DNA of 54,028 bases from Phycisphaerales bacterium. GTDB lineage: Bacteria; Planctomycetota; Phycisphaerae; Phycisphaerales; UBA1924. The stretch is from assembly GCA_019750095.1 (NCBI GenBank), contig JAIEOW010000051.1, positions 1-54,028 on the forward strand. Reading direction: 5' to 3'. The position numbers and the translations under genes are program-made. The notes under the pieces were generated by a model. It had not been told where the DNA came from, made no database searches, and saw only the letters and a program-made list of their open reading frames with translations. Positions 2,593 to 46,142 of the stretch are shown here, one piece after another (the stretch's first letter is position 1; every line of letters starts with the position of its first letter).

Positions 2593-2620
2593 GAGGCACT
2601 GGGCACTAGGCACTGGGCAC
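2593..2620. repeat. Heptamer array H1 (4 units, KRGGCAC type)
   Basis: Four consecutive 7-bp units, GAGGCAC, TGGGCAC, TAGGCAC and TGGGCAC, start 3 bp after the M24 peptidase stop codon and lie 48 bp before accB. Only one array is visible here, without an inverted partner. It belongs with the period-7 arrays at 3174, 3634, 19134 and 46041, which share the period but not the unit sequence. Confidence 0.8.
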
Positions 2621-2667
2621 TAGAGATGCCAAATGTGAGTGGTTGCTGGTGGTGGTGAAGGACGAAC

Positions 2668-3168
2668 ATGATCGACATTCGCAAGCTCAAAGAACTCGTG
2701 CGGCTGATGGTTGAGAACGACCTTTCCGAGCTGGACCTTCAGGACCAGCAGGAGACCGTCACGATCAAGCGCGGCGCCACCGCGGTCCCCGTCGCTCGGG
2801 TCGGTTCCGCCGCCGGCGCGATCGCGGGTGAGGTCGGCGCCGACGATGGCAAGCCCGAAGTCGAAGCCCCGGTCACCGCAGCCGCGGGCTCCGCGTCAGC
2901 ACCGGCAGCGCCGGCAAGCACGGCGGGTCTGATCCCGATCGTGAGCCCAATGGTCGGCACGGCATACCTCACCCCCAACCCGGACTCCCCTTCGTTCGTA
3001 CAGGTCGGCGCATCGATCGGGCCAGAGAGCACCGTCTGCCTCATCGAGGCCATGAAGGTCTTCAGCGAGATCAAGGCGGAGACTTCCGGCGTGATCGAGC
3101 GTGTGCTGGTGACCAATGGGCAAGCTGTGCAGTATGGACAGCAGTTGTTTCTGGTGCGGCCGGTGTGA
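2668..3168 (+). CDS. accB: Biotin carboxyl carrier protein of acetyl-CoA carboxylase
   Basis: 166-residue carrier subunit of acetyl-CoA carboxylase. It holds biotin and shuttles CO2 from biotin carboxylase to carboxyltransferase in the first step of fatty-acid synthesis. The N-terminal region (MIDIRKLKELVRLMVENDLS) is typical of AccB. A flexible Ala/Pro-rich linker covers about residues 40-95, and the lipoyl/biotinyl domain follows. The biotinylation site is the Lys in EAMKVFSEI, residue 130. An AAGGA Shine-Dalgarno lies about 7 bp before the ATG at 2668. accC lies downstream on the same strand, but the usual tight accB-accC spacing is broken by a 505-bp segment carrying a four-helix-bundle gene between heptamer arrays. 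Confidence 0.95.
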   Translation: MIDIRKLKELVRLMVENDLSELDLQDQQETVTIKRGATAVPVARVGSAAGAIAGEVGADDGKPEVEAPVTAAAGSASAPAAPASTAGLIPIVSPMVGTAYLTPNPDSPSFVQVGASIGPESTVCLIEAMKVFSEIKAETSGVIERVLVTNGQAVQYGQQLFLVRPV

Positions 3169-3173
3169 CTCCT

Positions 3174-3222
3174 GATGGCATGAGGCATGAGGCATGAGGC
3201 AAGAGGCATCAGGCAAGAGGGA
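3174..3222. repeat. Heptamer array H2 (7 units, TGAGGCA/AGAGGCA type)
   Basis: Seven consecutive 7-bp units: GATGGCA, TGAGGCA three times, AGAGGCA, TCAGGCA and AGAGGGA. The array begins 6 bp after the accB stop. Its last units contain GCAAGAG, the exact reverse complement of the unit in the array at 3634-3661, so the two arrays face each other across the four-helix-bundle gene. Confidence 0.85.
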
Positions 3223-3240
3223 AAGGCATTCGGGTGCGCG

Positions 3241-3624
3241 ATGGCCGGAGCAATCTCGTCCTATCAGGACCTTGTGGCATGGCAAAAGGCCTACGCAGTC
3301 GGCTGTCAGGTATATCGCGTGACGATGACATTCCCCCGCCACGAGCTCTTTGGCCTCACCAGTCAGGTACGTCGCGCGGCGACCTCGGTCGCACTGAACA
3401 TCGCTGAGGGCTACGGTCGCGGATCTGGCCCGGATTACCTGCGTTTCTTGCGACAGGCCCGGGGATCGCAGTTTGAACTCGACACAGCACTCATGTTTGC
3501 GACCGACTTTGGATACTTGGCGTTGGAGCTCCACCAAAGCCTCAGAAGTCAGCTCCAAGAGTCCGAGCGTGTCCTCGCTGGCCTGATCCGGAGCATCGAA
3601 GCATCTATTCGAACAAACGACTGA
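3241..3624 (+). CDS. Four-helix-bundle protein (S23/Avd-like, TIGR02436 type)
   Basis: 127-residue protein of the small four-helix-bundle family related to the 23S rRNA intervening-sequence protein and to the Avd accessory protein of diversity-generating retroelements. Family hallmarks are visible: SYQDLVAWQKAY near the N terminus, then FPRHELFGLTSQVRRAATSV, NIAEGYGRG and a Glu/Leu-rich C-terminal helix. The start is set at the ATG at 3241, because an upstream in-frame ATG (3187) would begin inside the heptamer repeats and add only repeat-encoded residues. The biochemical role of stand-alone members is not established; nucleic-acid binding is the usual suggestion. It is bracketed by inverted heptamer arrays and interrupts accB-accC. 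No reverse transcriptase is nearby, so this is not a complete retroelement. Confidence 0.88.
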   Translation: MAGAISSYQDLVAWQKAYAVGCQVYRVTMTFPRHELFGLTSQVRRAATSVALNIAEGYGRGSGPDYLRFLRQARGSQFELDTALMFATDFGYLALELHQSLRSQLQESERVLAGLIRSIEASIRTND

Positions 3625-3633
3625 TTTCCGTCT

Positions 3634-3661
3634 CTCTTGCCCCTTGCCTCTTGCCTCTTGC
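3634..3661. repeat. Heptamer array H3 (4 units, CTCTTGC type)
   Basis: Units CTCTTGC, CCCTTGC, CTCTTGC and CTCTTGC, followed by a decayed CTTCCCC, end 5-12 bp before the accC ATG. The array is the inverted partner of the one at 3174-3222. It occupies the place where the accC ribosome binding site should be, and no clear Shine-Dalgarno is left. Confidence 0.85.
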
Positions 3662-3673
3662 CTTCCCCTCCCC

Positions 3674-5017
3674 ATGTTCAAACGCATCCTCATCGCCAAT
3701 CGTGGAGAGATCGCCCTTCGTGTGATTCGCGCCTGTCGCGAGCTGGGGATCGCGCCGGTCTGCGTGTATTCCACTGCGGACAAGGACGCTCCGTATCTGC
3801 GCCTCGCCGACGAGGCGATCTGCATCGGGCCGGGGCCGGCGAAGGAGAGTTATCTCAACATCGCCCGCATCATCGCCGCGGCTGAGGTCGCGGGCGTCGA
3901 TGCGATCCATCCCGGATACGGCTTTCTCTCCGAGCGATCCGAGTTTGCCCAAGTGTGCAAAGACTGCAAGATCGAGTTCATCGGGCCTTCGCCCGAGGCG
4001 ATGGCGAAGCTCGGCGACAAGGTCGCGTGCAAGAACGCCGCCAAAGAAGCGGGCGTGCCGATCTTTCCCGGGTCGCCGGGCGCGATCGAGGACCCTGACG
4101 AAGCCGCGAAGATCGCCGCAAAGGTCGGGTATCCGGTCATCATCAAGGCCTCGGCGGGCGGCGGCGGACGCGGGATGCGCATCTGCCGCGATGAGGCCCA
4201 GCTTCGTGCCAACCTGAAAGCCGCCAGCACCGAGGCCCAGGCCGCCTTCGGCAACGGTGCCGTCTTCATCGAGAAGTTCCTCGAGCACGCCCGCCACGTC
4301 GAGGTCCAGTGCATGGGCGACAAGCACGGCGGGGGCATCCACCTCTTCGAGCGCGATTGCTCCATGCAGCGCCGCCACCAGAAGGTGATCGAAGAATCGC
4401 CCGGCCCGGGCATCGATCCAAAGAAGAAGGAAGCCGTCTGCGAAGCCGCGGCTCGGCTGATCCGCTCCGCCGGATACAGCGGGGCGGCAACGGTCGAGTT
4501 CCTCATGGACAAAGACCAGAACTTCTACATGCTGGAAGTGAACACCCGCATCCAGGTCGAGCATCCCGTCACCGAACTGGTGACCGGCGTCGATCTGGTG
4601 CAGGAAATGATCCGCGTGTCGGCGGGTGCGAAGCTCAGCGTCAAGCAGGAGCAGATCAAGCAGACCGGGCACGCCATCGAGTGTCGAATCAACGCAGAGG
4701 ACCCGGACAAGAACTTCATGCCAAGCCCGGGTCAGATCAAGCGCTACGAGCCACCGGGCGGCCCGGGCGTTCGTCTGGATTCGCACGCGGTGACCAACTA
4801 CACCGTGCCGACGAACTACGACAGCATGATCGGCAAGCTGCTCGTCCACGCCCCGACGCGCCAGGAAGCGCTCACCCGCATGGAGCGGGCACTCCGCGAG
4901 TACATCATCGAGCCCATCAAGACGACGATCCCGCTGCAACTGCGCTTGATGAGCGACCCGGGGTTCGTCAAGGGCGGGGTGGACATTCACTATCTGGAAC
5001 GGCTGCTGAAGGGCTGA
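3674..5017 (+). CDS. accC: Biotin carboxylase, acetyl-CoA carboxylase subunit
   Basis: 447-residue ATP-grasp enzyme that carboxylates the biotin of AccB using ATP and bicarbonate. The N-terminal pre-ATP-grasp domain begins FKRILIANRGEIALRVIRAC. The glycine-rich ATP loop is KASAGGGGRGMR, followed by RHVEVQ, FERDCSMQRRHQKVIEESP and the catalytic-face segment EVNTRIQVEHPVTE. The C-terminal domain ends DIHYLERLLKG. Length is normal for AccC. The start is the ATG at 3674; an in-frame ATG at 3644 would translate heptamer repeat sequence and is rejected. No good Shine-Dalgarno remains because the repeat abuts the start codon. It is followed by a strong hairpin before the convergent PEP-CTERM gene. 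Confidence 0.96.
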   Translation: MFKRILIANRGEIALRVIRACRELGIAPVCVYSTADKDAPYLRLADEAICIGPGPAKESYLNIARIIAAAEVAGVDAIHPGYGFLSERSEFAQVCKDCKIEFIGPSPEAMAKLGDKVACKNAAKEAGVPIFPGSPGAIEDPDEAAKIAAKVGYPVIIKASAGGGGRGMRICRDEAQLRANLKAASTEAQAAFGNGAVFIEKFLEHARHVEVQCMGDKHGGGIHLFERDCSMQRRHQKVIEESPGPGIDPKKKEAVCEAAARLIRSAGYSGAATVEFLMDKDQNFYMLEVNTRIQVEHPVTELVTGVDLVQEMIRVSAGAKLSVKQEQIKQTGHAIECRINAEDPDKNFMPSPGQIKRYEPPGGPGVRLDSHAVTNYTVPTNYDSMIGKLLVHAPTRQEALTRMERALREYIIEPIKTTIPLQLRLMSDPGFVKGGVDIHYLERLLKG

Positions 5018-5054
5018 AGCGCCGGCCGCGGATGATCCTGTGCATCAATGACAA

Positions 5055-5085
5055 GCCCCTGTCATCACGACGTGATGACAGGGGC
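5055..5085. terminator. Bidirectional terminator-like hairpin
   Basis: A perfect 14-bp inverted repeat (GCCCCTGTCATCAC and its complement) with a 3-nt loop GAC lies between the convergent accC and PEP-CTERM genes. No T-run follows on either strand. Position and stem strength support a terminator. Confidence 0.65.
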
Positions 5086-5122
5086 GTTGATGGATCAACT
5101 GAGATCGTGCAGATCGAAGAGA

Positions 5123-5758
5123 TCAGCGACGACGACGAGCGGCGAGCAGGCCACCGAGGCCCAGCAGCGCGGCCGAGCTTGGAGCCGGGATGAACTCGGC
5201 GCCGGTCAGCGTGATCTCGTAGTTGCCGGAGCTGGGGCCGGTGACGAGCTGGAACCACGACAGGACCGGGCCAGCATTCTGCGGCGACTGCACGCCCGTG
5301 AACACGTTCGCATCGAACACGGCCTCGCTCAGCAGCGAGGGAACGGCGACCGAGAACGGCTGATACGCGAAGCCGCCGATGGCGAGCAGATAGTCGCCAG
5401 CCGGGAGACCGGCGTACTGAGCCGCGCCGACGGGCAGCAACGACTCGAAGTTTGAGCCCGAGATGTCATCGTTCTTGGCGATGCCCGTGCCGTCGAGGTT
5501 GAACAGGTACAGGGTCGTGTCGCCCTGGATGCCCGTGGCGGCAGCGCTGAACGCGGCCGGGTTGCTGATGCGGATGCGGAACATGTCCGCGTCGCCAGCG
5601 GTCACCGAACCGGTGATCCCAGTGAGGGCGCCGGCGCCGGTGACGCTCTGGGCGGTGCCCGGGAGCTCACCTGCATCGGGGACTTCGGCGTAGATCGACG
5701 CCGAGGCGGTGCCGGCAATGGCCAGCAGGCCAAACAAAGCGATAGCAGCAGTACGCAT
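5123..5758 (-). CDS. Secreted PEP-CTERM-like anchored protein
   Basis: 211-residue exported protein. It has a short N-terminal signal peptide (MRTAAIALFGLLAIAGTASA, then SIYAEVPDAG). The Gly/Ala-rich central region contains a PPC-like beta-domain pattern: SVTAGDADMFRIRISN, DTTLYLFNLDG and LPAGDYLLAIGG. The C terminus is PAPSSAALLGLGGLLAARRRR-like, a short Pro-x-Pro motif, a hydrophobic helix and an Arg cluster. This is the PEP-CTERM sorting signal processed by exosortases. The function of the mature domain is unknown; it may be a surface or exopolysaccharide-associated protein. A Shine-Dalgarno-like GAGGAGA precedes the ATG at 5758. Confidence 0.8.
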   Translation of the reverse strand: MRTAAIALFGLLAIAGTASASIYAEVPDAGELPGTAQSVTGAGALTGITGSVTAGDADMFRIRISNPAAFSAAATGIQGDTTLYLFNLDGTGIAKNDDISGSNFESLLPVGAAQYAGLPAGDYLLAIGGFAYQPFSVAVPSLLSEAVFDANVFTGVQSPQNAGPVLSWFQLVTGPSSGNYEITLTGAEFIPAPSSAALLGLGGLLAARRRR

Positions 5759-5837
5759 CTCTTCTCTCTCCTCTGTGCGCCTTATTCAGGCGCGGTTGTG
5801 CGAACAAGCGGCACTCTCTAGAGTGAACGCTTTGTGA

Positions 5838-5865
5838 AGAATACCCCGAATCAAGGCCCATGCAA
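5838..5865 (-). promoter_or_regulatory. Possible sigma-70-type promoter for the PEP-CTERM gene
   Basis: Reading the minus strand, TTGCAT (5865-5860) is followed after 16 bp by TATTCT (5843-5838), about 80 bp upstream of the ATG at 5758. The -35 match is poor and the -10 match fair. This is a suggestion only. Confidence 0.25.
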
Positions 5866-6047
5866 GCCCTAGTCTGAGCAATGCTCCAGAAAAACGCCTG
5901 AGGTACTCCGATATTCCGGAAAACCCCGTAGCTCAGTGTGAATCGCTGGGGCAAAGCACTTTGGAGCACTGGCCGAGGTCTGCCGCCACGGGCTGATTCA
6001 GGCAGAAAGCACCGAACGCGTTCCGAAAATTACTGCTGTCGGCGTGA

Positions 6048-7715
6048 TCAGAACTTCTTGCGCAGGCGAGCGCTGGGGACGTTGAGCTGGTCGCGGTACT
6101 TGGCGACGGTTCGGCGGGCGATCTCGATGCCGCGTTTGCTCAGCTCGTCGGCGAGCGCGTCATCGGACAAGGGGCTGGCCTTGTCCTCGGCGTCGATGAT
6201 GTCCTTCAACGCGGCTTTGACGGCGTCCCACGAGACATTCTCGCCACTCTCGGTTTGCGTGCCCCCGGAGAAGAAGCCACGCAGGGGCACCACGCCGCGC
6301 GGGGTGAGCAGGTGCTTGTCGCTCACGGCCCGGCTGACGGTGGCGACGTGGATCCCGAGTTGCTCGGCGACCTGGGTCATGGGCAGGGGTTTGAGCGCCT
6401 GCGGGCCGTAATCGAAGTACTCGCGCTGCGCGTCGACCACGACGTTGATCACCCGCAGGAGCGTTCGCCGACGCTGCTCGACGGCGTCGATCAGCCACGC
6501 GGCGTTGGAGAGGTTCTTGCGGATGAACTCTTTGGTCGCCTTGGGCGATTCTTTCTCGCGCGCGAGCTTGGCGTATTCCTGATTGATCCGCAGGTTGGGC
6601 AAGCGCGTGTCATTCAGATACGCGATGTAGCGATCCTGGTCGGCGTCGTGCTCGACGATCGCGTCGGGAACGATCATCCCCGGCGCATCGTTCACGAGTT
6701 GTCGGCCCGGCGACAATGTCAGAAGCTTCATCCGCTCCATCGCCTGCTTGACCTGCGTCATGCTCAGCCCGGTCTTTTCCACGATCCGCGGCAGGCGGTT
6801 CTGGGCGAGGTCTTCGAGATGATCGGCGATGAGCTGCCGCACGATCGCCCACTGCTCGCGCTCGCTTATGGGTGAGAGATCGGTGAGCGCATCGGCCTGG
6901 ATCAGCAGGCACTCACGCGTGTCTCGCGCGCCGACGCCCGGCGGTTCGAGCAGGATCTGCACGGCTTGCAGGGCCTTGTGCATCAGCTCCAGCGTGGGGC
7001 GCGGCTGAGCGTCGGTCGCGGGGGGGAGGCGATCGATGATCGTCTCCAGCGGGGTGCGCAGATAGCCATCGTCTTCGATGTAGCCGATGATCGCCGCCCC
7101 GGGCTCGCGGAGTGCGTCCTCGACATCGGCGAGGCCCCACTGCTCCTGCAACTGCTGGACGAGCGATTCCGGCCGGGCGGCGGTGTTGGCCATCGCCTGA
7201 CTCTTGGCGTCGGGTTCGCCGTCAAGACGGGTAGACATGCCGCGTTCGAGCAGGTCGTAATCGGTGCCCTTCTCCTCGGGCCCAGCTTCGGTGTATTCGT
7301 TGGCGCGAACTTCGGGATGATCTTGCTCAAAGCTGTCCAGCCGATCGAAGTCGTCGGTGCCGTGCGCTTCGTCGACGGCCAGCTCGCGCTCGTCCTCGCT
7401 GCGGGCTTCGCTGGAAGTCTCGGCGTCGCTCGAGGCGCCGAGCTCGGCGTTGGGATCATCGTCGCCATCGATGTCGGGACCATCGAGATCATCCGACGAA
7501 TCGCCAGACTCATCGGAAGTCGTGGAGAGTCCGTCGGCGTCCTGATCCGGAGAGAGGTCGTCGATCTCCAGCGTGACGTTGGATTCCAGCTCCTGGGCGA
7601 TGCGCTCCTCAAGCTGCATGAGGGGCATCTGCAGGATTTCCATCGACTGGATCATCCGCGGCGCCAGCTTCATCTGCTGGCTGAGCTTCATGTGCTGTGA
7701 GGCGTCGAAGCGCAT
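6048..7715 (-). CDS. rpoN: RNA polymerase sigma-54 factor
   Basis: 555-residue alternative sigma factor that directs RNA polymerase to -24/-12 promoters and needs AAA+ activators. Region I is Gln/Leu-rich at the start (KLSQQMKLAPRMIQSMEILQ). It is followed by a long strongly acidic stretch (about residues 50-160), longer than in most RpoN proteins. The core-binding domain follows, then a HTH (MTQVAEQLGIHVATVSRAVS), and the C terminus carries the RpoN box ARRTVAKYRDQL. The start ATG at 7715 gives the expected MRFDASQHMKLSQQ N terminus. It lies downstream of recR on the same strand with a 193-bp gap. No sigma-54 activator is seen in the window. Confidence 0.95.
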   Translation of the reverse strand: MRFDASQHMKLSQQMKLAPRMIQSMEILQMPLMQLEERIAQELESNVTLEIDDLSPDQDADGLSTTSDESGDSSDDLDGPDIDGDDDPNAELGASSDAETSSEARSEDERELAVDEAHGTDDFDRLDSFEQDHPEVRANEYTEAGPEEKGTDYDLLERGMSTRLDGEPDAKSQAMANTAARPESLVQQLQEQWGLADVEDALREPGAAIIGYIEDDGYLRTPLETIIDRLPPATDAQPRPTLELMHKALQAVQILLEPPGVGARDTRECLLIQADALTDLSPISEREQWAIVRQLIADHLEDLAQNRLPRIVEKTGLSMTQVKQAMERMKLLTLSPGRQLVNDAPGMIVPDAIVEHDADQDRYIAYLNDTRLPNLRINQEYAKLAREKESPKATKEFIRKNLSNAAWLIDAVEQRRRTLLRVINVVVDAQREYFDYGPQALKPLPMTQVAEQLGIHVATVSRAVSDKHLLTPRGVVPLRGFFSGGTQTESGENVSWDAVKAALKDIIDAEDKASPLSDDALADELSKRGIEIARRTVAKYRDQLNVPSARLRKKF

Positions 7716-7804
7716 GGGAATGGGTCCAATCCAGACGGCTCGCCCAGGCCCGTCTCACGGGCTCCGGTACGAGACGTCGAATTGTCGGCATAGCAAGGCC
7801 CGAT

Positions 7805-7853
7805 GCCAAGCGAGTTTGGCCCGACTTTTGCTAGATGGTCGAAATCGCTTGGC
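7805..7853. repeat. 9-bp inverted repeat in the recR-rpoN gap
   Basis: GCCAAGCGA (7805-7813) and its exact complement TCGCTTGGC (7845-7853) are separated by 31 bp, 90-140 bp upstream of the rpoN start. It could be a leader hairpin, a weak terminator of recR, or an operator. There is no T-run. Confidence 0.4.
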
Positions 7854-7908
7854 TCGCCATTGACCCGGATTGGGCAGTTATCCCCCGAAGTGCCGTCGCG
7901 GGACGGAG

Positions 7909-8634: not shown

Positions 8635-8667
8635 GAGCCGAATCCTATGGGCCAAGGCCTAAGATCG

Positions 8668-9327: not shown

Positions 9328-9335
9328 GGTGCCTT

Positions 9336-9414
9336 GGGTGGGACGCTGGTCCCCAGCGTCATGCTTTGATTTCTGTGCACCCAAGAAGACCCGCTCGGGA
9401 CGAGCGGGCCACCC
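9336..9414. repeat. Inverted pair of GGTGG-N8-TCC-N8' hairpins
   Basis: The plus-strand copy is GGGTGG (9336-9341), stem GACGCTGG, loop TCC, stem complement to 9360. The minus-strand copy has stem CCCGCTCG at 9390-9397, loop GGA, complement to 9408, then CCACCC to 9414. The two hairpins face each other across 29 bp in the gap between the convergent phosphatase and methyltransferase genes, where they could also end transcription. Confidence 0.75.
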
Positions 9415-9435
9415 TCAAGACAATCAAGACCGCGA

Positions 9436-14317: not shown

Positions 14318-15742
14318 ATGGCATCCGTCGTCTTCTACTTCCAGGTCCACCAGCCGTTCCGCCTCAAACGCTACACGGTGTTTGACAACTCGCACTTTTA
14401 CTTTGACACCGAGAAGAACGGGCAGATCTGCCGCAAGGTGGCGGACAAGTGCTATCGCCCGGCGACGCAGCTCATTCTGGACATGGTGAAGGCCCACAAG
14501 GGGAACTTCCGGGTGTCGTACGCGCTCACGGGCGTGGTGCTGGATCAGATGGCCGAGTTTTGCCCGGATGTGCTGGACATCTTCAAGCGGCTGGCCGACA
14601 GCGGGTGCTGCGAGTTTCTGGGGGAGACGTACTACCACTCGCTGAGCTTTCTGTACTCGCGGCAGGAGTTCACCGAGCAGGTGAACGCGCACACGAAGAA
14701 GATTCAGGAGCTCTTTGGGCAGACGCCCAAGGTCTTCCGGAATACCGAACTGATCTACAACAACGACCTTGGGCACTTTCTGAACCAGATGACGGTGGAT
14801 GAGGGTGGCCCGCTGGTCCCCAGCGGGGCGGCTTCGGGGGCGGGAAGGGCAGGAAGCAAAGGCAACTCGCTCGGGACGAGCGAGCCACCCAAGGCAAACT
14901 CGCTCGGGACGAGCGAGCCACCCAAGGCACAAGGCAAGAAGCGGTGGATGGGCGGGATCTGCGAGGGGGTGGATCACATTCTGGGGTTCCGGTCGCCGAA
15001 CTATCTGTATCGCCCGCCGCACACGGGGGATGGGCCGACGGGCAAGCCGTTCTGCATGATGCTGAAGAACTATCGGCTGAGCGATGACATCGCGTTCCGG
15101 TTCAGCAATCGCGGGTGGGCGGAGTGGCCGCTGAGCGCGGAGAAGTTTGCCGGGTGGGTGAACCAGATCAACGGCGACGGCACGCTGTGCAACCTGTTCA
15201 TGGACTATGAAACCTTCGGCGAGCACCAGTGGGCCGACACGGGGATCTTTGAGTTTCTGCGGGCGATGCCGGGCAAGATCTTTGACGTGAACCCGGGGCA
15301 GAACCATTTCAATACGCCGAGCGAGGCGATTGAGCGGTTTGATCCGGTGGGCGTGTACGACGTGCCGCACATGATCTCATGGGCCGACACCGAGCGCGAC
15401 CTGACGGCGTGGCTGGGCAACGCGATGCAGAGCAACGCGCTGCTGGAGACGTACAAGCTGGAGAAGCCGATCAAGGAGCGGTACGGAGCCGCCCTGGCGG
15501 CGGTGAAGGGCGACGCGAACGACGCGATGAAGCAGCGCGAGCTGGACGAGGCGGGGTATCTGCTGGCCGACTGGCGGAAGCTGACGACGAGCGATCACTT
15601 TTACTACATGTGCACGAAGTATTGGTCAGACGGCGACGTGCACAAGTACTTTTCGCCGTACGACTCGCCGTATGACAGCTACATCAACTTCATGAATGTG
15701 CTGGACAATGTGCGGTCGAGGGCGAGTGGGGTGACGGTGTAG
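14318..15742 (+). CDS. Glycoside hydrolase family 57 (alpha-amylase type)
   Basis: 474-residue cytoplasmic enzyme acting on alpha-glucans. GH57 motifs are visible in order: HQPFRLKRY near residue 11, GETYYHS near 102, FRNTELIYNND with the presumed nucleophile Glu144, and LFMDYETFGEHQW (about 290) with the presumed acid/base Asp. The start is the ATG at 14318, giving MASVVFYFQVHQP. Residues about 159-209 are an odd Gly/Ser/Pro/Lys-rich insert (GGPLVPSG..., then SLGTSEPPKAN twice) encoded by three hairpin repeats; family members normally run from FLNQM straight to the MGGICEGVDHILG segment. The insert is in frame, so the enzyme may remain active with a surface loop. Substrate is likely glycogen or maltodextrin. 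Confidence 0.88.
   Translation: MASVVFYFQVHQPFRLKRYTVFDNSHFYFDTEKNGQICRKVADKCYRPATQLILDMVKAHKGNFRVSYALTGVVLDQMAEFCPDVLDIFKRLADSGCCEFLGETYYHSLSFLYSRQEFTEQVNAHTKKIQELFGQTPKVFRNTELIYNNDLGHFLNQMTVDEGGPLVPSGAASGAGRAGSKGNSLGTSEPPKANSLGTSEPPKAQGKKRWMGGICEGVDHILGFRSPNYLYRPPHTGDGPTGKPFCMMLKNYRLSDDIAFRFSNRGWAEWPLSAEKFAGWVNQINGDGTLCNLFMDYETFGEHQWADTGIFEFLRAMPGKIFDVNPGQNHFNTPSEAIERFDPVGVYDVPHMISWADTERDLTAWLGNAMQSNALLETYKLEKPIKERYGAALAAVKGDANDAMKQRELDEAGYLLADWRKLTTSDHFYYMCTKYWSDGDVHKYFSPYDSPYDSYINFMNVLDNVRSRASGVTV
14803..14923. repeat. Three GGTGG-N8-TCC-N8' hairpins inside the GH57 gene
   Basis: Copy 1 (plus strand): GGGTGG, stem CCCGCTGG (14809-14816), TCC, complement to 14827. Copies 2 and 3 (minus strand): stem CTCGCTCG at 14866-14873 and 14899-14906, GGA, complement, then CCACCC. 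They form a direct 33-bp tandem. All three are translated in frame as part of the amylase. Confidence 0.8.
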
Positions 15743-18471: not shown

Positions 18472-19326
18472 TCAGATGCGGCGATACGCCGCGATCACGC
18501 TCGTTCCGCTTGGTAGACGCGTGTGCGGCAGCAGGTGCTTCTCAACTTCGAACGCTTTGGTCAAAGTCCAGTTGATCAATCCGGGGAGTGGCTCCACGGT
18601 CGGCTCGGCCGGGGGCTTGCCACTCAGTCGCGTCTTGGCCTTTTCCACCACGCGTGCCGCGACGACCAGCGGCATTGACGCAAGTTGGTAGTAGCTCAGA
18701 ACAAGCTGGTGAACGGGAAGCCCATCAAAGAGCGCGCCGAACTGTGACCGCGTGTAGCGGCGCTGGTGGTAGTTGAAATCATCGTGGCTGGACCAGAGCC
18801 ACATGTGCGCCGGCACGGTGCAGACCACCAGGCCGCCGGGCTTGAGCAGATCAACACACGCGGCGATGGAGGCGCGGTCTTCGGGCACGTGCTCGATGAC
18901 CTCGCTGAGCACGATCAGGTCATAGCCGCGCCCGCCGCGGGATGGAGCGTGGGCGACGATCTGCGCAGGAAGCTGATCGGGGAGCGCGCCGTCGAGAACA
19001 TCAAAGCCGCGCTTCTTGCAATAGTCCCGGGCGATCGCGGACATGTCGATGCCGGTGACGCTGTAGCCAAAGCGTTCCGCGGCGAGCGCGGTGAGCAGGG
19101 CGCCCGCGCCGCAGCCGATGTCGAGGGCGGAGGGGCGGGAATCGGGAGTCGGGAATCGGGAATCGGGTGAGTTGGCCTCGTGCTTTTCCGCATGCGAGAC
19201 CCGAGACCCGAGACCCGAAACCCGACCATACCGCTCCACCAGCGACAGAATGATCCGGTTCTTCGCCACCCACCACCAATATGTCTCTTCACGCTCGGCG
19301 TGCAGGCGATAGAGGGCGTCATCCAC
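18472..19326 (-). CDS. SAM-dependent methyltransferase with an in-frame heptamer-repeat insert
   Basis: 284-residue class I methyltransferase. The N-terminal YWWWVAKNRIILSLVERYG is typical of glycan/lipid-modifying methyltransferases. Motif I is ALDIGCGAGALLTAL, followed by YSVTGIDMSAIARDYC and YDLIVLSEVIEHVPED. Between the N-terminal helix and motif I lies an unusual segment, about residues 33-66 (SGLGSRVS, then SPDSRFPTPDSRPS), encoded by two inverted heptamer arrays. The start is the GTG at 19326, overlapping the stop of the glycosyltransferase gene (GTGGATGA), so the two are translationally coupled. Context suggests modification of a polyprenyl-linked or surface glycan. The substrate is unknown. 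Confidence 0.82.
   Translation of the reverse strand: MDDALYRLHAEREETYWWWVAKNRIILSLVERYGRVSGLGSRVSHAEKHEANSPDSRFPTPDSRPSALDIGCGAGALLTALAAERFGYSVTGIDMSAIARDYCKKRGFDVLDGALPDQLPAQIVAHAPSRGGRGYDLIVLSEVIEHVPEDRASIAACVDLLKPGGLVVCTVPAHMWLWSSHDDFNYHQRRYTRSQFGALFDGLPVHQLVLSYYQLASMPLVVAARVVEKAKTRLSGKPPAEPTVEPLPGLINWTLTKAFEVEKHLLPHTRLPSGTSVIAAYRRI
19134..19222. repeat. Paired inverted heptamer arrays H4 inside the methyltransferase gene
   Basis: The left array (19134-19168) has units ATCGGGA/GTCGGGA, five in a row. The right array (19195-19222) has CGAGACC three times and CGAAACC once. Read on the opposite strand the right units are GGTCTCG/GGTTTCG, matching the GGNNTCG pattern of the left units (GGAATCG/GGAGTCG). 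The arrays are therefore inverted, separated by 26 bp, and the whole is translated in frame. Confidence 0.85.
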
Positions 19327-37958: not shown

Positions 37959-38155
37959 GGTGAAGACTACCCGGGGCACACGGCGGGCATCTGCCGAGGC
38001 CCGAGATCAGTCCGAGCACCCATAACCAACCGGAAGTTCGAGCAAAGACCATGATCTTGCGATGTGCGGCGGATGCGAGCACGAGACGCGGGGGGTTGCG
38101 TCCGATTGAGGAGAAAGTTCTCGGGAATCGCCCTCCTCTGACTCGGAGCTTAAGA

Positions 38156-38938: not shown

Positions 38939-38954
38939 GGCCGGAAAATCAGAC

Positions 38955-39821: not shown

Positions 39822-39829
39822 TCCTGCTG

Positions 39830-40711: not shown

Positions 40712-40717
40712 GACAAA

Positions 40718-41566
40718 TCATAGAGGCGAAGTCGCCACCCACACCGCCAGGGCAACGTTTGCGGCGTTGAACAGCACGTGCATCACGATCGGCGCGAGCA
40801 CGCCGCGTGAGCGCTCGAATGTGAGCCCTATGGCGATGCTGAGGACGAAGAGCGTGGGCAGCGCGTGCGGATCGGCGGTGCCGACGTGGGCGGCGGTGAA
40901 GATCGCCGAGGTTGCGATGATCGCGTACCACGTCCGCCCCATGAGCGACAGCATGCATGACTGCAGAAAGCCGCGGTAGACGATCTCCTCGACGATCGGC
41001 GCACCGATGACCGCGGCCGCCGCCAGCACCCAGGCCCACGGCGTGTCACGCTCGTCGATGATCCTCTGCAGAGTTGAATGGGCCACCGTCGCCGGCGGCG
41101 AACCGCTGATGAGCGCGGCGATCCGCGTCGAGACCCACGCCACCACAAGACAGACGGGCGCGGCCAAGAACATCGCCCATGTACCGGTCACGGCGTCTCG
41201 CGGGCGCAGTCGCAGACCCGTGCGGTCACTCGTGCGCGAGTGAAGAAACCAGATCAGCGTCCCCGCCATCACGATCGCGCCGCCGTAGGCGATCGCCGCG
41301 AGCATCGCGTCGTTCTGCACCGACTTGGGCGGACCGAGCGCCGACGCCGGAAGCGACTTCGCGATTCCAGCACCAAACGGCGCGGCCAGAAATACCATCG
41401 CGGCGCACACAAACCAGACCGGCGCGGGAATGCCCCACACATCGCGCTGCTGCGCCGGCTTTGGGCCAAAGGACCCCGGCCCGATGAGCTTTCGCCGCCA
41501 CAGCGCGACCACGATCACCACGCTGGCGAGCCCGGCAAAGAGCGGAATGATGAGATTCGGGGGCAT
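40718..41566 (-). CDS. CPBP-family intramembrane metalloprotease (Abi/CAAX type)
   Basis: 282 residues with about seven or eight membrane helices. The Abi-type CPBP glutamate motif is IVEEIVYRGFLQSCM (EExxxR), followed by the second motif in FTAAHVGTA and the His in IVMHVLFNAANVALA. The fold is shared with Rce1 proteases that cut prenylated or other membrane proteins; bacterial members have roles in bacteriocin self-immunity and surface-protein processing. The target is unknown. The N-terminal part has a cytoplasmic basic loop (WRRKLIGPGSFGPKP). The start is at 41566. Confidence 0.9.
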   Translation of the reverse strand: MPPNLIIPLFAGLASVVIVVALWRRKLIGPGSFGPKPAQQRDVWGIPAPVWFVCAAMVFLAAPFGAGIAKSLPASALGPPKSVQNDAMLAAIAYGGAIVMAGTLIWFLHSRTSDRTGLRLRPRDAVTGTWAMFLAAPVCLVVAWVSTRIAALISGSPPATVAHSTLQRIIDERDTPWAWVLAAAAVIGAPIVEEIVYRGFLQSCMLSLMGRTWYAIIATSAIFTAAHVGTADPHALPTLFVLSIAIGLTFERSRGVLAPIVMHVLFNAANVALAVWVATSPL

Positions 41567-41649
41567 GCTCGTCTGAGCGTACGGCGTGTGGACGGGTATT
41601 GCACGCTGATTTTTCTCGATCGCGCTTCAGCATCACGGTTTTCGGACCG

Positions 41650-42039
41650 ATGCCCTACCGCATGAGCCGACCAAACAGCTTCCGATTCGAGCGTGCGCGA
41701 GCGATGAAGCCCCGGCATGTCGTTGAGCAGGATCCGTTCAAGCTCGAGCGCCGCCGCTTGGTGCGAGAAGAGGCTGAGGGGGTGCTGCGCGCGAGCTACT
41801 CCGTCCCAGCGACCGACGATCAGCCGGCACGATTCGGGATCACGCAGATCAAGCTTGTGGATCGTTCTCCTGGAGGGCTCGGAGCCATCGCCGCCATCGA
41901 GCTGGAACCCGGCATGAGCATCACCATCTGCCCGGAGGGGTCATCGATCGCGTGGCTCTCGGCCCGAGTCGCGCGGTGTGAGAGAATCGAAGAGGGGTTC
42001 CGTATCGGGCTCCGATACGCCGACCTCGCGGCGGCTTGA
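41650..42039 (+). CDS. PilZ-domain-like protein
   Basis: About 129 residues from the ATG at 41650 (MPYRMSRPNSFRF); ATGs at 41662 and 41704 also fit. The domain has RRRLVREEAEG at the N-terminal side and DRSPGGLGAIA in the middle, matching the RxxxR and DxSxxG elements by which PilZ domains bind cyclic di-GMP. The rest is beta-strand rich (SITICPEGSSIAWLSARV, FRIGLRYA), as expected. It may be a stand-alone c-di-GMP receptor; links to motility (the MotAB genes lie nearby but are separated) are an inference. LptB-like gene follows 27 bp downstream and may be co-transcribed. Confidence 0.7.
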   Translation: MPYRMSRPNSFRFERARAMKPRHVVEQDPFKLERRRLVREEAEGVLRASYSVPATDDQPARFGITQIKLVDRSPGGLGAIAAIELEPGMSITICPEGSSIAWLSARVARCERIEEGFRIGLRYADLAAA

Positions 42040-42066
42040 GTCGATTGGACTCGACTACGCTTTGAC

Positions 42067-42873
42067 GTGCCCCTGCTGCAAGCCCAGAACCTCCAGAAGT
42101 CGTACTCCGGCCGCAAGGTCGTCCAGGGCGTCAGCTTCCACGTTGACGAATCCGAGATCGTCGGGCTGCTCGGACGCAACGGCGCTGGCAAGACCACCAG
42201 CTTCCGCATGACCATCGGCATGATCGATGCCGACGCGGGCAAGGTGGTCTTTGACGGACGCGACGTGTCGGCCCTGCCGATGTACCAGCGTGCCCGGCTA
42301 GGTATGGGCTATCTGTCGCAGGAACCGAGTGTCTTTCAGCGACTGACCTTCGAGCAGAATCTGCTGGCGATCCTCGAGACACTCCCGATCTCACGGGCCG
42401 AGCGCAAAGCGCGGGCCGCGGAACTGCTCGAACAGTTTCGCCTGACGCATAAGGCCAAGGAGCACGCCCGCACCGGCTCCGGCGGCGAGAAGCGCAAGCT
42501 CGAGATCGCCCGCGCCCTGGTGACCGAGCCGAAGCTCATCCTGCTCGACGAGCCCTTCAGCGGCGTTGATCCGATCGCGGTCGAAGACCTGCAGCGCGAG
42601 ATCCGCTCGCTGTCATCCCGCGGCATCGCCTGCCTGATCACCGACCACAACGTGCAGCAGACGCTGCGGGTGTGCGACCGGGCGTACATCATCGATGAAG
42701 GCAAGAAGTTCGCCGAGGGCACCCCGCGCGAACTCATCAACGATGACATGGTGAAGCGTGTGTACCTGGGCGGGCTCTTCCGCGGGGATGAGTTTGATGA
42801 CTTGCCGAGCCCGACGGGGCGGAATGGGTTTCGGAGCAAGGCGGGGGCGGGGAGTTCGTCGGGGAACGATTGA
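42067..42873 (+). CDS. lptB: LptB-like LPS-export ABC ATPase
   Basis: 268 residues from a GTG at 42067 (MPLLQAQNLQKSY). Walker A is GRNGAGKTTSFRMTIG, the Q-loop is MGYLSQEPSVFQRLTFEQNL, the signature is GSGGEKRKLEIARAL, and Walker B is LILLDEPFSGVDP with the His in LITDHNVQQTL. The Y-L-S-Q-E-P-S-V-F sequence and the D-H-N-V motif are LptB hallmarks. LptB drives lipopolysaccharide transport with LptF/G, not in this window. In the signature the usual Leu is replaced by Gly (GSGG for LSGG). A C-terminal extension of about 25 residues (SPTGRNGFRSKAG...) is not typical. Confidence 0.88.
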   Translation: MPLLQAQNLQKSYSGRKVVQGVSFHVDESEIVGLLGRNGAGKTTSFRMTIGMIDADAGKVVFDGRDVSALPMYQRARLGMGYLSQEPSVFQRLTFEQNLLAILETLPISRAERKARAAELLEQFRLTHKAKEHARTGSGGEKRKLEIARALVTEPKLILLDEPFSGVDPIAVEDLQREIRSLSSRGIACLITDHNVQQTLRVCDRAYIIDEGKKFAEGTPRELINDDMVKRVYLGGLFRGDEFDDLPSPTGRNGFRSKAGAGSSSGND

Positions 42874-42932
42874 ACGCTTCATCTTCACACCAGTGAAACT
42901 CGCCGAGCGGCAATCGGATCAACCGGGGACCG

Positions 42933-43679
42933 ATGGCATACTTCGGCGAAGACCATCCTGAGTACGGCTCGCAGAAGCGAGCGATGATGTTCACCTCGCG
43001 CCTGCCCGTGCCGGTGTGTATCGTCGGGCCGTATTGGCTGGCCATGTTTCTGGAAGTCTGCTTTGCTTTCGCGAAAGACGAACCGGTCTTGCGGTGGTGG
43101 TCGTCGGGCATGTTGGTTGTTCTCTCTGCACCGTTCTTCATCAAGTTCATCCGAAGAGATCGCCGTGCCGTGGCTGAGTTCGAGTGTCCGTGGTGCCACC
43201 TTGCGCTCGTCGGCGATTCCGACACAACGTGCCCGCACTGCCAGCAGGACTTGATGTTCGAAGTGCCAGCGCACTTGCTCGGGCCAGATGCTCCAGATCG
43301 TCCGGAGCCTTGCTTGGCATGCGGCTATGACCTTACCGGCTGCAAAGCCGTCGTTTGCCCGGAGTGTGGGGTGGAAACCGCGCGACCCAAATTCCGCGTG
43401 TCGAAACTGGTCGAACAAGGGATTTTTGCTATGCCGGGCGTTGGCTATGGCTCACCAAGGAGGCGATACGGACCAGTCGTAATACTGGTGACAGTCTTGG
43501 TGGTGATGAGCATGGTCGGCGTGCCGTTACTGACACCTATCGGGTTCGCCTGGAACTTTTGGAGCTTCGATCAGTTCGCGACAATTCTGTTCGCCATCAT
43601 CGGCCTCGGCTCAGGGATCGGACTCTACCTGGCGCTTTCGACCCGGTCGCACACAAGTCGCCGTGCCGATCAGTCATGA
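42933..43679 (+). CDS. Membrane protein with zinc-ribbon cytoplasmic domain (paralog 1)
   Basis: 248 residues. Two membrane helices at the N-terminal part (VCIVGPYWLAMFLEVCFAF, SSGMLVVLSAPFFIKFI), a cytoplasmic Cys-rich domain and two more helices at the C terminus (VVILVTVLVVMSMVG, FATILFAIIGLGSGIGLYL). The domain has two zinc-binding pairs: CPWCHLA...CPHCQQD and CLACGYDLTGCKAVVCPECG. The latter CxxCGYxL...CPECG pattern recurs in the proteins at 52629-53081 and 53078-53440. No function is known to me; such proteins are common in planctomycetes. Confidence 0.7.
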   Translation: MAYFGEDHPEYGSQKRAMMFTSRLPVPVCIVGPYWLAMFLEVCFAFAKDEPVLRWWSSGMLVVLSAPFFIKFIRRDRRAVAEFECPWCHLALVGDSDTTCPHCQQDLMFEVPAHLLGPDAPDRPEPCLACGYDLTGCKAVVCPECGVETARPKFRVSKLVEQGIFAMPGVGYGSPRRRYGPVVILVTVLVVMSMVGVPLLTPIGFAWNFWSFDQFATILFAIIGLGSGIGLYLALSTRSHTSRRADQS

Positions 43680-44690
43680 CACGACCCACGCCCGCGCCGC
43701 AAACTGCTCTCGATCGCGTGCAAAGTCTACCGGCGTGCTCGGCAGCTTGACCCATCGCGGCGCACTTCCCAATCCCGCGACGATCTCGCGCTCCAGCCGT
43801 CCCGGTCGGCACAGTTCCTGCGTGTTGGTCGACGCGAAGATCACGCCGCCCGGAGCTGCGAGCGCCGACGCTTCGCGCACGAGCCTGGCGTAGTCGGCGA
43901 CCGAGCTCCAGGGTCGAATGCCCTTCTTCTTTGACCCCGCCGCGAAGCTGGGTGGATCCAGCACGATGAGATCGAACCGCATCTCCTTCCGCTTGGCGTA
44001 CCCAAAGAACTCGAACGTGTCCATCTTCGCAAAGCGGTGCAACGCGGCGTCGAGGCCGTTGTGCGCAAAGTTGCGTTTGCCCCAGTCCAGATAGCGTGCG
44101 GAGACATCAACACTCGCCGTGATCGCCCCGCCCATCGCCGCGGCGACCGAGAACGCGCACGTATACGCGAAGGTGTTCAGCACATGCACCGGCCCGGGGG
44201 CTGCTTGCACGCGGCGCCGCACCCAGTCATGAACAAACCGCCGATTGTCGCGTTGATCGAGGAAGAGCCCGGTGGAGAAGCCGTCGAACAGGCGGACTTC
44301 CAGATTCCAGGCGTGCTCGCGCACCATGAGCGCTTCAGGAAGCGCATCGCCCGCGGCGGGGGTCGGGTCGGTCACGATCGACGGAAGCTCGCCGCCGATC
44401 TTGGATCGGTCTTTGGCGAACGGCTTGAAGTACACCCCGCGAACGCCGATGGCTCGAAGCGCGTCCAAGACCAGACCCGCCGCACCCGGGTCCATCATCG
44501 CTTTGGGCGCACGTCCTTCGTAGACGATCAGCACCGCGCCCTCGCCATACACATCGATGAACACGCCATCGAGGCCGTCGGCCTGGCCGCTGAACACGCG
44601 GATCGCCTGGGTGGTGCCGGAATCGATCAGCGATCGGCGATTGATGATCGCGGCGGCGATCAGCTTGGTCAGATCTGCGGACCCGCTCAC
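43674..44690 (-). CDS. RlmI/RlmK-like class I rRNA methyltransferase
   Basis: 338 residues from a GTG at 44690, which overlaps the stop of the KS gene (GTGA). The N-terminal alpha/beta domain (DGLDGVFIDVYGEGAVLIV) and the Rossmann domain are present: HVLNTFAYTCAFSVAAAM (motif I region), ASVDVSARYLDWGKRNFAHN and catalytic VLDPPSFAAGSKKKG. These are typical of the RlmI family that makes m5C in 23S rRNA. RlmI normally starts with a PUA domain of about 60-70 residues; here the protein begins at the second domain, and the PUA is missing. Function on rRNA is therefore likely but not certain. Confidence 0.82.
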   Translation of the reverse strand: MSGSADLTKLIAAAIINRRSLIDSGTTQAIRVFSGQADGLDGVFIDVYGEGAVLIVYEGRAPKAMMDPGAAGLVLDALRAIGVRGVYFKPFAKDRSKIGGELPSIVTDPTPAAGDALPEALMVREHAWNLEVRLFDGFSTGLFLDQRDNRRFVHDWVRRRVQAAPGPVHVLNTFAYTCAFSVAAAMGGAITASVDVSARYLDWGKRNFAHNGLDAALHRFAKMDTFEFFGYAKRKEMRFDLIVLDPPSFAAGSKKKGIRPWSSVADYARLVREASALAAPGGVIFASTNTQELCRPGRLEREIVAGLGSAPRWVKLPSTPVDFARDREQFAARAWVVS

Positions 44691-46039
44691 CCGCGCCACT
44701 TCCGAACGCAGACGGTGTCGTTCTGCCCGCCGAAGCCGAAACTGTTGCTGAGGCAGACTTCCACGCCGCCCTGGGCTCGGCAATCGCGAGCCTGATTTGG
44801 AATGTGATCCAGATCGCACTCCGGATCCGGCGTGTTCAGGTTCATCGTCGGCGGCAGAAACCCCGTCTTGATCGCCTGCACGCAGGTGATCAGTTCCACC
44901 GCGCCCGCCGCCTGGATCAGGTGCCCGAGCATGCTCTTCACGCTGGAAAACGGCACCCTGGACGCCATCGGGCCAAAGACGCCCTTGACGGCCTTGGTCT
45001 CTATGCGGTCGTTTTCTTTGGTGCCGGTGCCGTGGGCCGAGATGTAGTGCACCTGAGGCCGGCCATCCGGCCCCGGCTCGCGCGGGTTGATGCCTGCCTG
45101 GCGACAGGCCTCCAGCATCGCGCCCTGCGCACCGCGACCTTCGGGCTGGATATCTGTGATGCGAAACGCGTCTGCGGTCGAGCCATAGCCAACGACTTCG
45201 CACAGGGGCGTCGCGCCGCGGGCCAGCGCATGGTCGAGCGTTTCCAGCACGACCATGCCCGCGCCCTCGCCCATGACAAAGCCGTCGCGGGTGCGATCGA
45301 ATGGGCGCGGGGCGTGCACGGGGTCATCGCGGCGCTGGCTCATCGCCGTCAGACGGATGAATCCGGTCATGCCCAGCGGATGGATCATCGTGTGGGCGCC
45401 GCCAGCGAACATGACGTCGGCGTCGCCGCGACGGAGGATCTCCACGGCCTCGCCCACGGCCTGCGTGCTGGCGGCACAGGCCGTCATGCAGTTGCTCGAT
45501 GGGCCGCGGCAGCCGAACGCCGTCGCCACGTGGGCGAGGGTCATCTGCGGCTCCTGCTCGATCTCGCGCACGGGCGTCATGCGCTCATACGCCTTCTTCG
45601 CCCACGCCACGGGGTCATACGCGCCGCGGCCTTCGTCCAGCGCATTGTTCCAGCCGGCGAGATTGGCCTCTGCGTAGTTGTCAAAGTCCAGCGTGCCCTC
45701 GCCCGCGCCGAGATACATCCCGAAGCGTCGGCCCTTGAACTTGCCACTGGCGGCGAGTGCGTCGAGCCCGGCTTCCTTGAACGCCCGAGAGGCCGCGGCG
45801 AGGGCAAACTTCGTGCTTAGGCCCGCCTGTTCGTGCGCCGCCGCCCGCTCGCCAAGGAAATCGGCGAGCCGAAAATCCCGCACCTCCGCGGCAAAGTTGG
45901 TCTTAAACGTGCCCGCGTCAAACCGCGTCACACGCCCGACGCCCGACGCACCCGCGAGCAGCTTGCTCCAGACGGCATCCACGTCGCTCCCTAGCGGCGT
46001 GATCCAGCCCGTGCCCGTGATGACGATGCGGTGGCTCAT
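44687..46039 (-). CDS. Beta-ketoacyl-ACP synthase (FabF-like), catalytic triad intact
   Basis: 450 residues. A condensing enzyme of fatty-acid or polyketide type. All catalytic residues are visible: the Cys in TACAASTQAV, the first His in AHGTGTKEND and the second His in VKSMLGHLIQAAG. The N terminus MSHRIVITGTGWITPLG and the C-terminal NSFGFGGQNDT are standard for KAS II. An insert of about 30-40 residues (FDNYAEANLAGWNNALDEGR) differs from E. coli FabF. The start ATG is at 46039. It shares an operon-like order with a second KS-like gene (46886-48214) and a GxxExxY gene. Elongation of an unusual product rather than housekeeping fatty acids is possible. Confidence 0.92.
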   Translation of the reverse strand: MSHRIVITGTGWITPLGSDVDAVWSKLLAGASGVGRVTRFDAGTFKTNFAAEVRDFRLADFLGERAAAHEQAGLSTKFALAAASRAFKEAGLDALAASGKFKGRRFGMYLGAGEGTLDFDNYAEANLAGWNNALDEGRGAYDPVAWAKKAYERMTPVREIEQEPQMTLAHVATAFGCRGPSSNCMTACAASTQAVGEAVEILRRGDADVMFAGGAHTMIHPLGMTGFIRLTAMSQRRDDPVHAPRPFDRTRDGFVMGEGAGMVVLETLDHALARGATPLCEVVGYGSTADAFRITDIQPEGRGAQGAMLEACRQAGINPREPGPDGRPQVHYISAHGTGTKENDRIETKAVKGVFGPMASRVPFSSVKSMLGHLIQAAGAVELITCVQAIKTGFLPPTMNLNTPDPECDLDHIPNQARDCRAQGGVEVCLSNSFGFGGQNDTVCVRKWRG

Positions 46040-46040
46040 A

Positions 46041-46142
46041 TGAAAACGAAAAAGGAAAAGTGAAAAACGAAAATGATCAAGCGAGACGTTCTGCCGAACT
46101 GGTGCAGCTTTTCACTTTTCGTTTTTCACTTTTGGCTTTGGC
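46041..46142. repeat. Paired inverted heptamer arrays H5 (A/T-rich)
   Basis: The left array (46041-46075) has TGAAAAC, GAAAAAG, GAAAAGT, GAAAAAC and GAAAATG. The right array (46108-46142) has CTTTTCA, CTTTTCG, TTTTTCA, CTTTTGG and CTTTGGC. Read on the opposite strand the right units are TGAAAAG/CGAAAAG, matching the left. A 32-bp spacer separates them. It lies between the KS start codon and the end of the GxxExxY gene, the most AT-rich island in the window. Confidence 0.85.

What the first reader, a model, noticed from the sequence alone, without database searches (positions are those of the whole stretch)
2593..46142. A dispersed family of locus-specific heptamer arrays in inverted pairs
At four loci the DNA shows perfect period-7 tandem repeats: 2593 (TGGGCAC), 3174/3634 (GCAAGAG), 19134/19195 (GGNNTCG) and 46041/46108 (GAAAAAC). 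The unit differs between loci, but within each paired locus the second array is the reverse complement of the first. So it is the period and inverted architecture that are conserved, not the sequence. That is hard to explain by ordinary slippage and suggests a mechanism that builds or homogenises heptamers within a locus, or an element whose ends are free to drift together. Tandem heptamers (STRRs) are known from cyanobacteria, and S23-type four-helix-bundle genes have been noted near such repeats, but I know of no defined system that accounts for inverted, locus-private heptamer pairs.
Basis: partly seen in the sequence, partly recalled or inferred. Interest (0 to 1): 0.88.

Follow-up and report, generated by a model that had tools for sequence, protein, structure and literature searches.

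The report
Mobile genes bracketed by mirrored heptamers
The seven-letter repeat arrays in this genome are one case of a widespread pattern in which a small gene of one family (S23, also known from inserts in ribosomal RNA genes) is often bracketed by mirrored repeat arrays with a wording of its own; the bracketed unit is likely a small mobile element, and the mirrored pairs without a gene are likely its stripped-down copies.

Summary
The arrays are real and far above chance. They are not private to each locus: 25 arrays in an 800-kb sample of the genome use three unit 'dialects' (one array mixes in another word), and the same three flank three of its S23 genes. The 3177/3663 pair brackets an S23 gene (PF05635, 23S rRNA intervening-sequence protein) between accB and accC. 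Across several phyla, 70 of 113 S23 loci have flanks that are inverted repeats (15 of 2,809 control loci do); 66 of those 70 arms have an internal period of 7, 8 or 9. At fixed sites (groES-groEL, dcd-nrdJ) related genomes carry different S23 genes with different dialects while flanking DNA is 73-91% identical; two congeners have no insert at groES-groEL. Best reading: a mobile element resembling the 23S rRNA intervening sequence, whose ends are conserved in period and inverted layout, with gene-less pairs as non-autonomous copies. The heptamers upstream of Coxiella's intervening-sequence ORF, already in print, fit. GxxExxY nuclease genes show a parallel pattern with words spaced mostly 8-10. 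Movement, the enzyme behind it and any role of S23 in it are inferred.

The parts
2595..2621 (+). solo heptamer array, GGCACTG/GGCACTA dialect, between the M24 peptidase gene and accB; same dialect as the arms of another S23 gene of this genome (L009, G000:C183)
3177..3220 (+). 5' arm: GGCATGA/GGCAAGA array upstream of S23
3241..3624 (+). S23 / 23S_rRNA_IVP four-helix-bundle gene (PF05635, E 3e-32; TIGR02436), inserted between accB and accC; ATG at 3241 assumed (an in-frame ATG also lies inside the array, 3187)
3634..3663 (-). 3' arm: inverted GGCAAGA array (CTCTTGC on +)
19136..19167 (+). arm of a gene-less inverted pair, CGGGAAT dialect
19168..19194 (.). 27-nt loop of the gene-less pair
19195..19225 (-). 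second arm, CGGGTCT variant of the same dialect; the whole 90-bp pair lies in an open frame inside the methyltransferase gene 18472-19326 (-), in a linker that is short in G001 and G021
46043..46073 (+). arm of a gene-less inverted pair, A-rich dialect (GAAAAAC/GTGAAAA), just upstream of the beta-ketoacyl synthase gene
46074..46106 (.). 33-nt loop
46107..46139 (-). second arm of the A-rich pair
2668..3168 (+). accB (biotin carboxyl carrier protein), upstream neighbour of the S23 element
3674..5017 (+). accC (biotin carboxylase), downstream neighbour
18472..19326 (-). methyltransferase gene that contains the 19 kb pair

Best explanation
The arrays are the mirrored ends of what is likely a small mobile element built like the 23S rRNA intervening sequence: a period-7 (sometimes 8 or 9) array, an S23 gene, and the same array inverted. 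Shown by calls: the layout at most S23 loci examined in several phyla, its rarity at control genes, the link of array dialect to S23 lineage, sites without the insert, different occupants at one site with well-conserved flanks, related occupants with one dialect at different sites, gene-less pairs of the S23's dialect elsewhere in the genome, and insertion inside coding genes. Predicted but not shown as RNA: the arms pair into a long stem with the S23 gene in its loop. Inferred: movement as a unit; recognition of the arrays by the S23 pentamer through spacing, perhaps one subunit per repeat unit, which would keep the period while letting the letters drift; an unidentified enzyme that moves the hairpin as single-stranded DNA or RNA; persistence where cutting or interrupting the transcript does little harm (operon junctions, protein linkers, rRNA helices); gene-less pairs as non-autonomous copies served in trans, as REPINs are thought to be by RAYTs.
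For: S23 flanks form inverted repeats (score 14 or more) at 70 of 113 de-duplicated loci against 15 of 2,809 control loci; arms have period 7 in 47, 8 in 15, 9 in 4, none in 4 of those 70, against none in 65 of 70 after shuffling. Own arms match each other far better than arms of other loci (sum 1963, maximum of 2000 permutations 1019). At groES-groEL six genomes carry S23 (48-61% aa identity) with six dialects, each upstream arm best matched by its own downstream arm; flank DNA identity was measured for three of them, 82-88%; G041 and G042 have a 66-nt gap and no insert. At dcd-nrdJ eleven genomes including G000 carry S23; the ten others are 46-58% identical to the G000 one, with flanks 73-91% identical. 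S23 can keep pace with its flanks when inherited (L277/L278 83% aa and 83% DNA, flanks 87-90%; dN/dS 0.03-0.25 in six of seven pairs), so about 50% at these sites points to replacement. Similar S23 genes with the same dialect at different sites: L009/L112, L115/L266, L273/L277/L178. Dispersed arrays best match an S23 flank of their own genome in 20 of 25 (G000, which has 5 of the 113 flanks) and 5 of 6 (G122). GGGAATC x3 gives 25 overlapping hits at 11 places in G000, the L010 S23 locus being one, and one hit in 150 other genomes.
Against: 43 of 113 S23 loci show no inverted repeat at this cut, and 3 of the 11 dcd-nrdJ loci neither. Of 115 S23 pairs at different sites with 55% or more identity only 10 have upstream flanks scoring 20 or more against each other, three of these within Flavobacteriaceae, so shared dialect at new sites rests on few cases. 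Nineteen Flavobacteriaceae keep S23 at one site with one dialect and no better pairing within a locus than between loci: long-term residents, not movers. Loops of gene-less pairs are unrelated in sequence, so pairs are not simple copies of one another. G019, without S23 at E 1e-10, has a GGGCACT inverted pair at accB-accC. Nine of the ten S23-bearing relatives sampled have one or no period-7 array in 40 kb, so spread within a genome is not general. The 46 kb dialect matches none of the S23 arms seen in G000. One plasmid S23 (L315) has direct, not inverted, arrays. No target-site duplication was defined. S23 has no known function (PMC4990558 passage).
Confidence: 0.55

Rival explanations
1. The inverted array pairs are host structures (slippage products, G-quadruplex or hairpin elements) and S23 genes merely use them as preferred landing sites.
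For: Gene-less pairs with short loops (about 7-40 nt in most) exist without S23; the accB-accC gaps of G001 and G008 (period 8) and G019 (period 7) hold arrays and no S23; Rehm et al. 2015 report GGGAATC arrays with 70 and 75 convergent pairs in two Xanthomonas genomes.
Against: The groES-groEL gap holds no array in G041 and G042, which have no insert. The dialect goes with S23 identity and in a few cases follows S23 to another site, which a landing site would not predict.
Confidence: 0.2
2. Nothing moves: S23 genes are old residents of operon junctions that diverge fast, and the arms are RNA stems kept by selection for processing or insulation of the transcript.
For: Predicted folds are stable (z -3.82, -3.89 and -2.64); same-site S23 sets span many genera; the intervening sequence of Coxiella is cut by RNase III (PMC4990558).
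Against: Flanks 91% identical in DNA while S23 is 51% identical in aa (L009/L344); S23 mostly under purifying selection; related S23 plus dialect at different sites; the flavobacterial arms show no matching within a locus.
Confidence: 0.12
3. The pairs are REPIN-like and are moved by a RAYT or other Y1 transposase; S23 is a passenger or regulator.
For: Inverted short repeats with a hairpin fold, spread within the genome, with dialect groups, as in REPINs (abstract of PMC3116915).
Against: The repeat dialect follows S23 itself. The presence of a RAYT was not tested.
Confidence: 0.09
4. A locus-level process builds or homogenises heptamers in both arms.
For: Some pairs share the order of variant units in both arms (L037, L030).
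Against: Dialects recur across loci and follow the S23 lineage; no matching within a locus in the flavobacterial set; the 19 kb arms differ in unit.
Confidence: 0.04

Closest known systems
23S rRNA intervening sequence (IVS) with S23p ORF (Coxiella; Leptospira and others according to the same paper)
   Same: S23-family gene between complementary ends that form a stem; in Coxiella tandem heptamers (GACAGAT) lie directly upstream of the ORF and vary in number between strains (PMC4990558: abstract, passages and one section read)
   Different: Ours sit between or inside protein genes, not in a helix of 23S rRNA; each lineage has its own dialect; gene-less pairs exist; excision untested
GGGAATC heptamer arrays of Xanthomonas and GGGGAYT arrays of Nostoc (Rehm et al. 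2015, PMC4692102)
   Same: G-rich heptamers dispersed in the genome, convergent inverted pairs in Xanthomonas, one identical unit
   Different: That paper studies them as G-quadruplex formers; the parts read (abstract, introduction, first of three parts of the results, discussion) do not mention S23 genes
REPINs with RAYT transposases (Bertels and Rainey 2011, PMC3116915, abstract read)
   Same: Inverted short repeats with a spacer, hairpin fold, several sequence groups in one genome, each associated with a gene
   Different: Tandem period-7 arms; the associated gene is S23, not a tyrosine transposase
TAACTGA heptamer repeats of Beggiatoaceae (MacGregor 2015, PMC4679880, abstract read)
   Same: Intergenic tandem heptamers
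   Different: One unit, direct, with only one indirect repeat reported in the main genome
Avd of diversity-generating retroelements
   Same: PF05635 resembles Avd (PMC10053308, passages); the L267 S23 hits the Avd model at E 3.6e-6, below its cut-off
   Different: No reverse transcriptase or template/variable repeat was looked for here

Membership tests
23S rRNA intervening sequence (IVS) | encodes an S23/IVP-family protein | tested here: met
   PF05635 E 3e-32; TIGR02436
23S rRNA intervening sequence (IVS) | complementary ends that can form a stem | tested here: met
   inverted arms; predicted RNA fold closes on the arms, z -2.64
23S rRNA intervening sequence (IVS) | located in a helix of 23S rRNA | tested here: not met
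   lies between accB and accC
23S rRNA intervening sequence (IVS) | excised from the transcript by RNase III | not testable with these tools
   needs RNA work
Xanthomonas-type GGGAATC heptamer arrays | GGGAATC-type tandem unit, dispersed in the genome | tested here: met
   19136-19225 pair; 25 overlapping hits of the 21-mer at 11 places in G000
Xanthomonas-type GGGAATC heptamer arrays | convergent inverted pairs | tested here: met
   in the 13 pairs printed (11 of G000, 2 of G122) the G/A-rich array comes first
REPIN/RAYT | two inverted short repeats with spacer forming a hairpin, dispersed | tested here: met
REPIN/RAYT | cognate RAYT (Y1 transposase) in the genome | not tested
   no genome search left
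DGR Avd | adjacent reverse transcriptase and template/variable repeats | not tested
   no search made

The most novel reading that the evidence does not exclude
S23 and GxxExxY genes define a superfamily of mobile elements in bacteria (and at least one archaeal S23 locus) whose ends are recognised by period, not by sequence: each lineage carries its own tandem dialect in mirrored arms, exchanges as a cassette at fixed operon junctions, enters coding genes as an intervening sequence, and seeds gene-less hairpins in its dialect. The 23S rRNA intervening sequence and the Xanthomonas heptamers would be special cases of this one system.
Probability: 0.4. Interest if true: 0.92.

Novelty: new variant of a known kind. 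Interest (0 to 1): 0.82.

Why it matters
It would tie three loose ends together: unexplained heptamer repeats in many genomes, orphan 'four helix bundle protein' genes, and the origin of 23S rRNA intervening sequences. It also makes an old question (what S23 does, and how intervening sequences move) testable: each S23 with arms comes with its own predicted target sequence.

Tried and rejected
Slippage of low-complexity DNA: period 7 dominates and pairs are inverted. Locus-private units: rejected, three dialects recur. GxxExxY gene as owner of the 46 kb pair: rejected, the window copy has no arms (IR 8.0) and hits with similarly low scores are listed for most genomes of the own family, so it looks vertically inherited. 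Phage carriage of S23: no match to the window S23 in 50,697 phage records at E 1e-5. Genome-level link between S23 presence and array number: inconclusive (7 period-7 arrays in 400 kb of ten S23+ genomes, six of them in G122; 2 in 400 kb of seven S23- genomes, one of them a G run). Co-drift within a locus in the flavobacterial set: not seen. Literature: 10 full-text searches; in the listings seen (at most 21 titles each, the rest of the longer lists unseen) I found no paper linking chromosomal S23 genes to heptamer arrays in general; the Coxiella paper notes heptamers in its intervening sequence only. Only open-licence papers were searched. In my notes I placed a gene-less pair of G012 at accB-accC; on rechecking it lies upstream of accB, and the report says so.
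Full report
Observation. TRF and my own period scan confirm heptamer arrays at 2595-2621, 3177-3220, 3634-3663, 19136-19167 and 19195-19225; TRF alone also lists a weaker A-rich pair at 46043-46073 / 46107-46139. In 40 stretches (800 kb) of the same genome, chosen without regard to content, period 7 gives 26 arrays against 1 in a block shuffle; without one G run, 25 remain. They use three dialects: GGCACTA, GGGAATC (with GGGTCTC variants) and GGCAAGA; one array mixes GGCATTC units with GGGAATC. Inverted partners exceed direct ones (16 against 6 of 72 array-side comparisons), and in the 13 pairs printed the G/A-rich array comes first.

What the window holds. The 3177-3663 locus is an S23 gene (PF05635) between the two arms, inserted between accB and accC. 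The 2595 array is solo and has the dialect of another S23 locus of the genome, L009. The 19 kb pair is a 90-bp hairpin in an open frame inside a methyltransferase gene; G001 and G021 have a short linker there, G002 an unrelated longer one without arrays. The 46 kb pair stands upstream of a beta-ketoacyl synthase gene. Predicted RNA folds: z -3.82 (19 kb), -3.89 (46 kb), -2.64 (S23 locus), and -0.26 for the solo array.

S23 genes in general. I took S23 loci from the own genome (6 matches; 5 used), the order (74 of 151 genomes positive; 29 further best-scoring loci fetched), named genomes (41 loci), the phylum (131 of 294 positive; 30 best-scoring loci) and stretches picked because they hold S23. 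After removing duplicates 113 remained; one own locus was not located by tblastn and loci too near a contig end were dropped. In 70 of 113 the upstream and downstream 150 bp form an inverted repeat scoring 14 or more. Controls: 0 of 564 and 7 of 639 ORFs of at least 300 aa, 3 of 823 and 5 of 754 ORFs of S23 size (any ORF, not proven genes), 0 of 29 accB genes. Arms have period 7, 8 or 9 in 66 of 70. The named loci with inverted flanks include Bacteroidota, Chloroflexota, a Peptococcaceae member and a Thermoplasmata archaeon. By set, the own genome plus order gave 28 of 34 and the named genomes 14 of 40. In 21 more S23 loci from six relatives, 15 reach 14. Of 8 plasmid S23 loci fetched out of 29 records, 7 have an array on at least one side and 5 reach 14. 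The sets are not independent: 19 loci are one site in Flavobacteriaceae.

Dialect and lineage. The upstream arm fits its own downstream arm best in 59 of 113 loci, and the summed score (1963) exceeds every one of 2000 permutations (maximum 1019). Arm similarity rises with S23 identity. At groES-groEL (Pfam Cpn10 and Cpn60) six genomes carry S23 with six dialects, all six upstream arms best matched by their own partner (27 of 20000 permutations reach the sum), while G041 and G042 have a 66-nt gap with no insert. At dcd-nrdJ (Pfam DCD and class II ribonucleotide reductase) eleven genomes carry S23; flanks are 73-91% identical to G000, S23 46-58%; own arms beat cross arms (0 of 50000 permutations), though only 5 of 11 rank first and 3 of 11 score below 14. 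So a fixed site changes occupant and dialect together. Conversely L009/L112 (60% aa), L115/L266 (62%) and the L273/L277/L178 group (76-90%) share a dialect at different sites; but of 115 different-site pairs at 55% or more only 10 have upstream flanks scoring 20 or more against each other. S23 is under purifying selection in six of seven pairs (dN/dS 0.03-0.25; one 0.60).

Dispersed copies. In G000 20 of 25 and in G122 5 of 6 dispersed arrays find their best match among 113 S23 flanks in a flank of their own genome. The 21-mer GGGAATC x3 gives 25 overlapping hits at 11 places in G000, the L010 S23 locus being one, and one hit (G067) in 150 other genomes of the order. In the other nine S23-bearing genomes sampled there were too few arrays to test.

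Inside genes. In L272, L275 and L276 the S23 element lies inside a DNA methyltransferase gene: the upstream part ends at ...FWLIGQPDV and the downstream part resumes at QVEV(H/L)GFDYYNPKTG and runs on to its stop. Two uninterrupted plasmid homologues have a variable linker there. With junctions set by simple patterns the insert is not a multiple of three in these three loci (in a fourth, L186, it is), so the gene looks split; whether the RNA is cut or joined is unknown.

A second family. GxxExxY/PDDEXK_3 genes (34 of 35 fetched loci located) show inverted flanks in 24 of 34, built of CACAGAG-type words spaced mostly 8-10. In G012 the words at its GxxExxY gene recur in a gene-less inverted pair between the peptidase gene and accB, the gap that holds the solo array in the window.

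Mechanism. Shown: layout, lineage-bound dialect, sites without insert, different occupants at one site, gene-less pairs. Inferred: movement as a unit; recognition by S23, whose Xanthomonas relative is a homopentamer of four-helix bundles (PMC4990558 passage; 2gsc), one subunit per unit; an unknown enzyme; tolerance of the insert through cutting of the transcript, as RNase III does at the Coxiella intervening sequence. The one-subunit-per-heptamer idea is mine and untested.

Against. 43 of 113 loci lack arms at this cut; the flavobacterial set is static and shows no matching within a locus; few cases support a shared dialect at new sites; gene-less loops are unrelated; G019 has a pair and no S23; L315 has direct arrays; no target-site duplication was defined.

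Placement. By membership it is not an rRNA intervening sequence (location not met), but it is built like one. The lineage of the host is inferred only: the closest named S23 hit is from a Phycisphaeraceae MAG (L126).

Noticed in passing
L305 and L295 (G095, groES-groEL gap): a 1.1-kb insert with an ORF that looks like a sulfotransferase (recalled motif, no family search) fills the same gap; no heptamer arms seen in the printed sequence
   Followed up: no
L317 and L315 (Picosynechococcus and Pseudanabaena plasmids): S23 genes sit between cas10 and a Cmr3-family gene and between cas6 and cas4; L315 has long direct arrays AAAAGCT / AAAAGCC on both sides
   Followed up: partly
L051:12435-12870: GGGAATC-dialect inverted arms around about 345 nt of internally palindromic sequence with no S23 recognised in its six-frame translation
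   Followed up: no
L266 and L115: S23 genes with GGCACGGA-type period-8 arms, words close to those at GxxExxY genes: the two families may share or swap arms
   Followed up: no
L273, L277, L278, L279: an S23 subclade with long period-9 arrays (GAACGGTTT type) on both sides
   Followed up: no
window 14859-14929: 33-bp unit repeated 2.2 times with an internal inverted repeat
   Followed up: no
window 46163-46774 (-): GxxExxY/PDDEXK_3 paralogue without arms, of a low-scoring type listed for most genomes of the own family
   Followed up: partly
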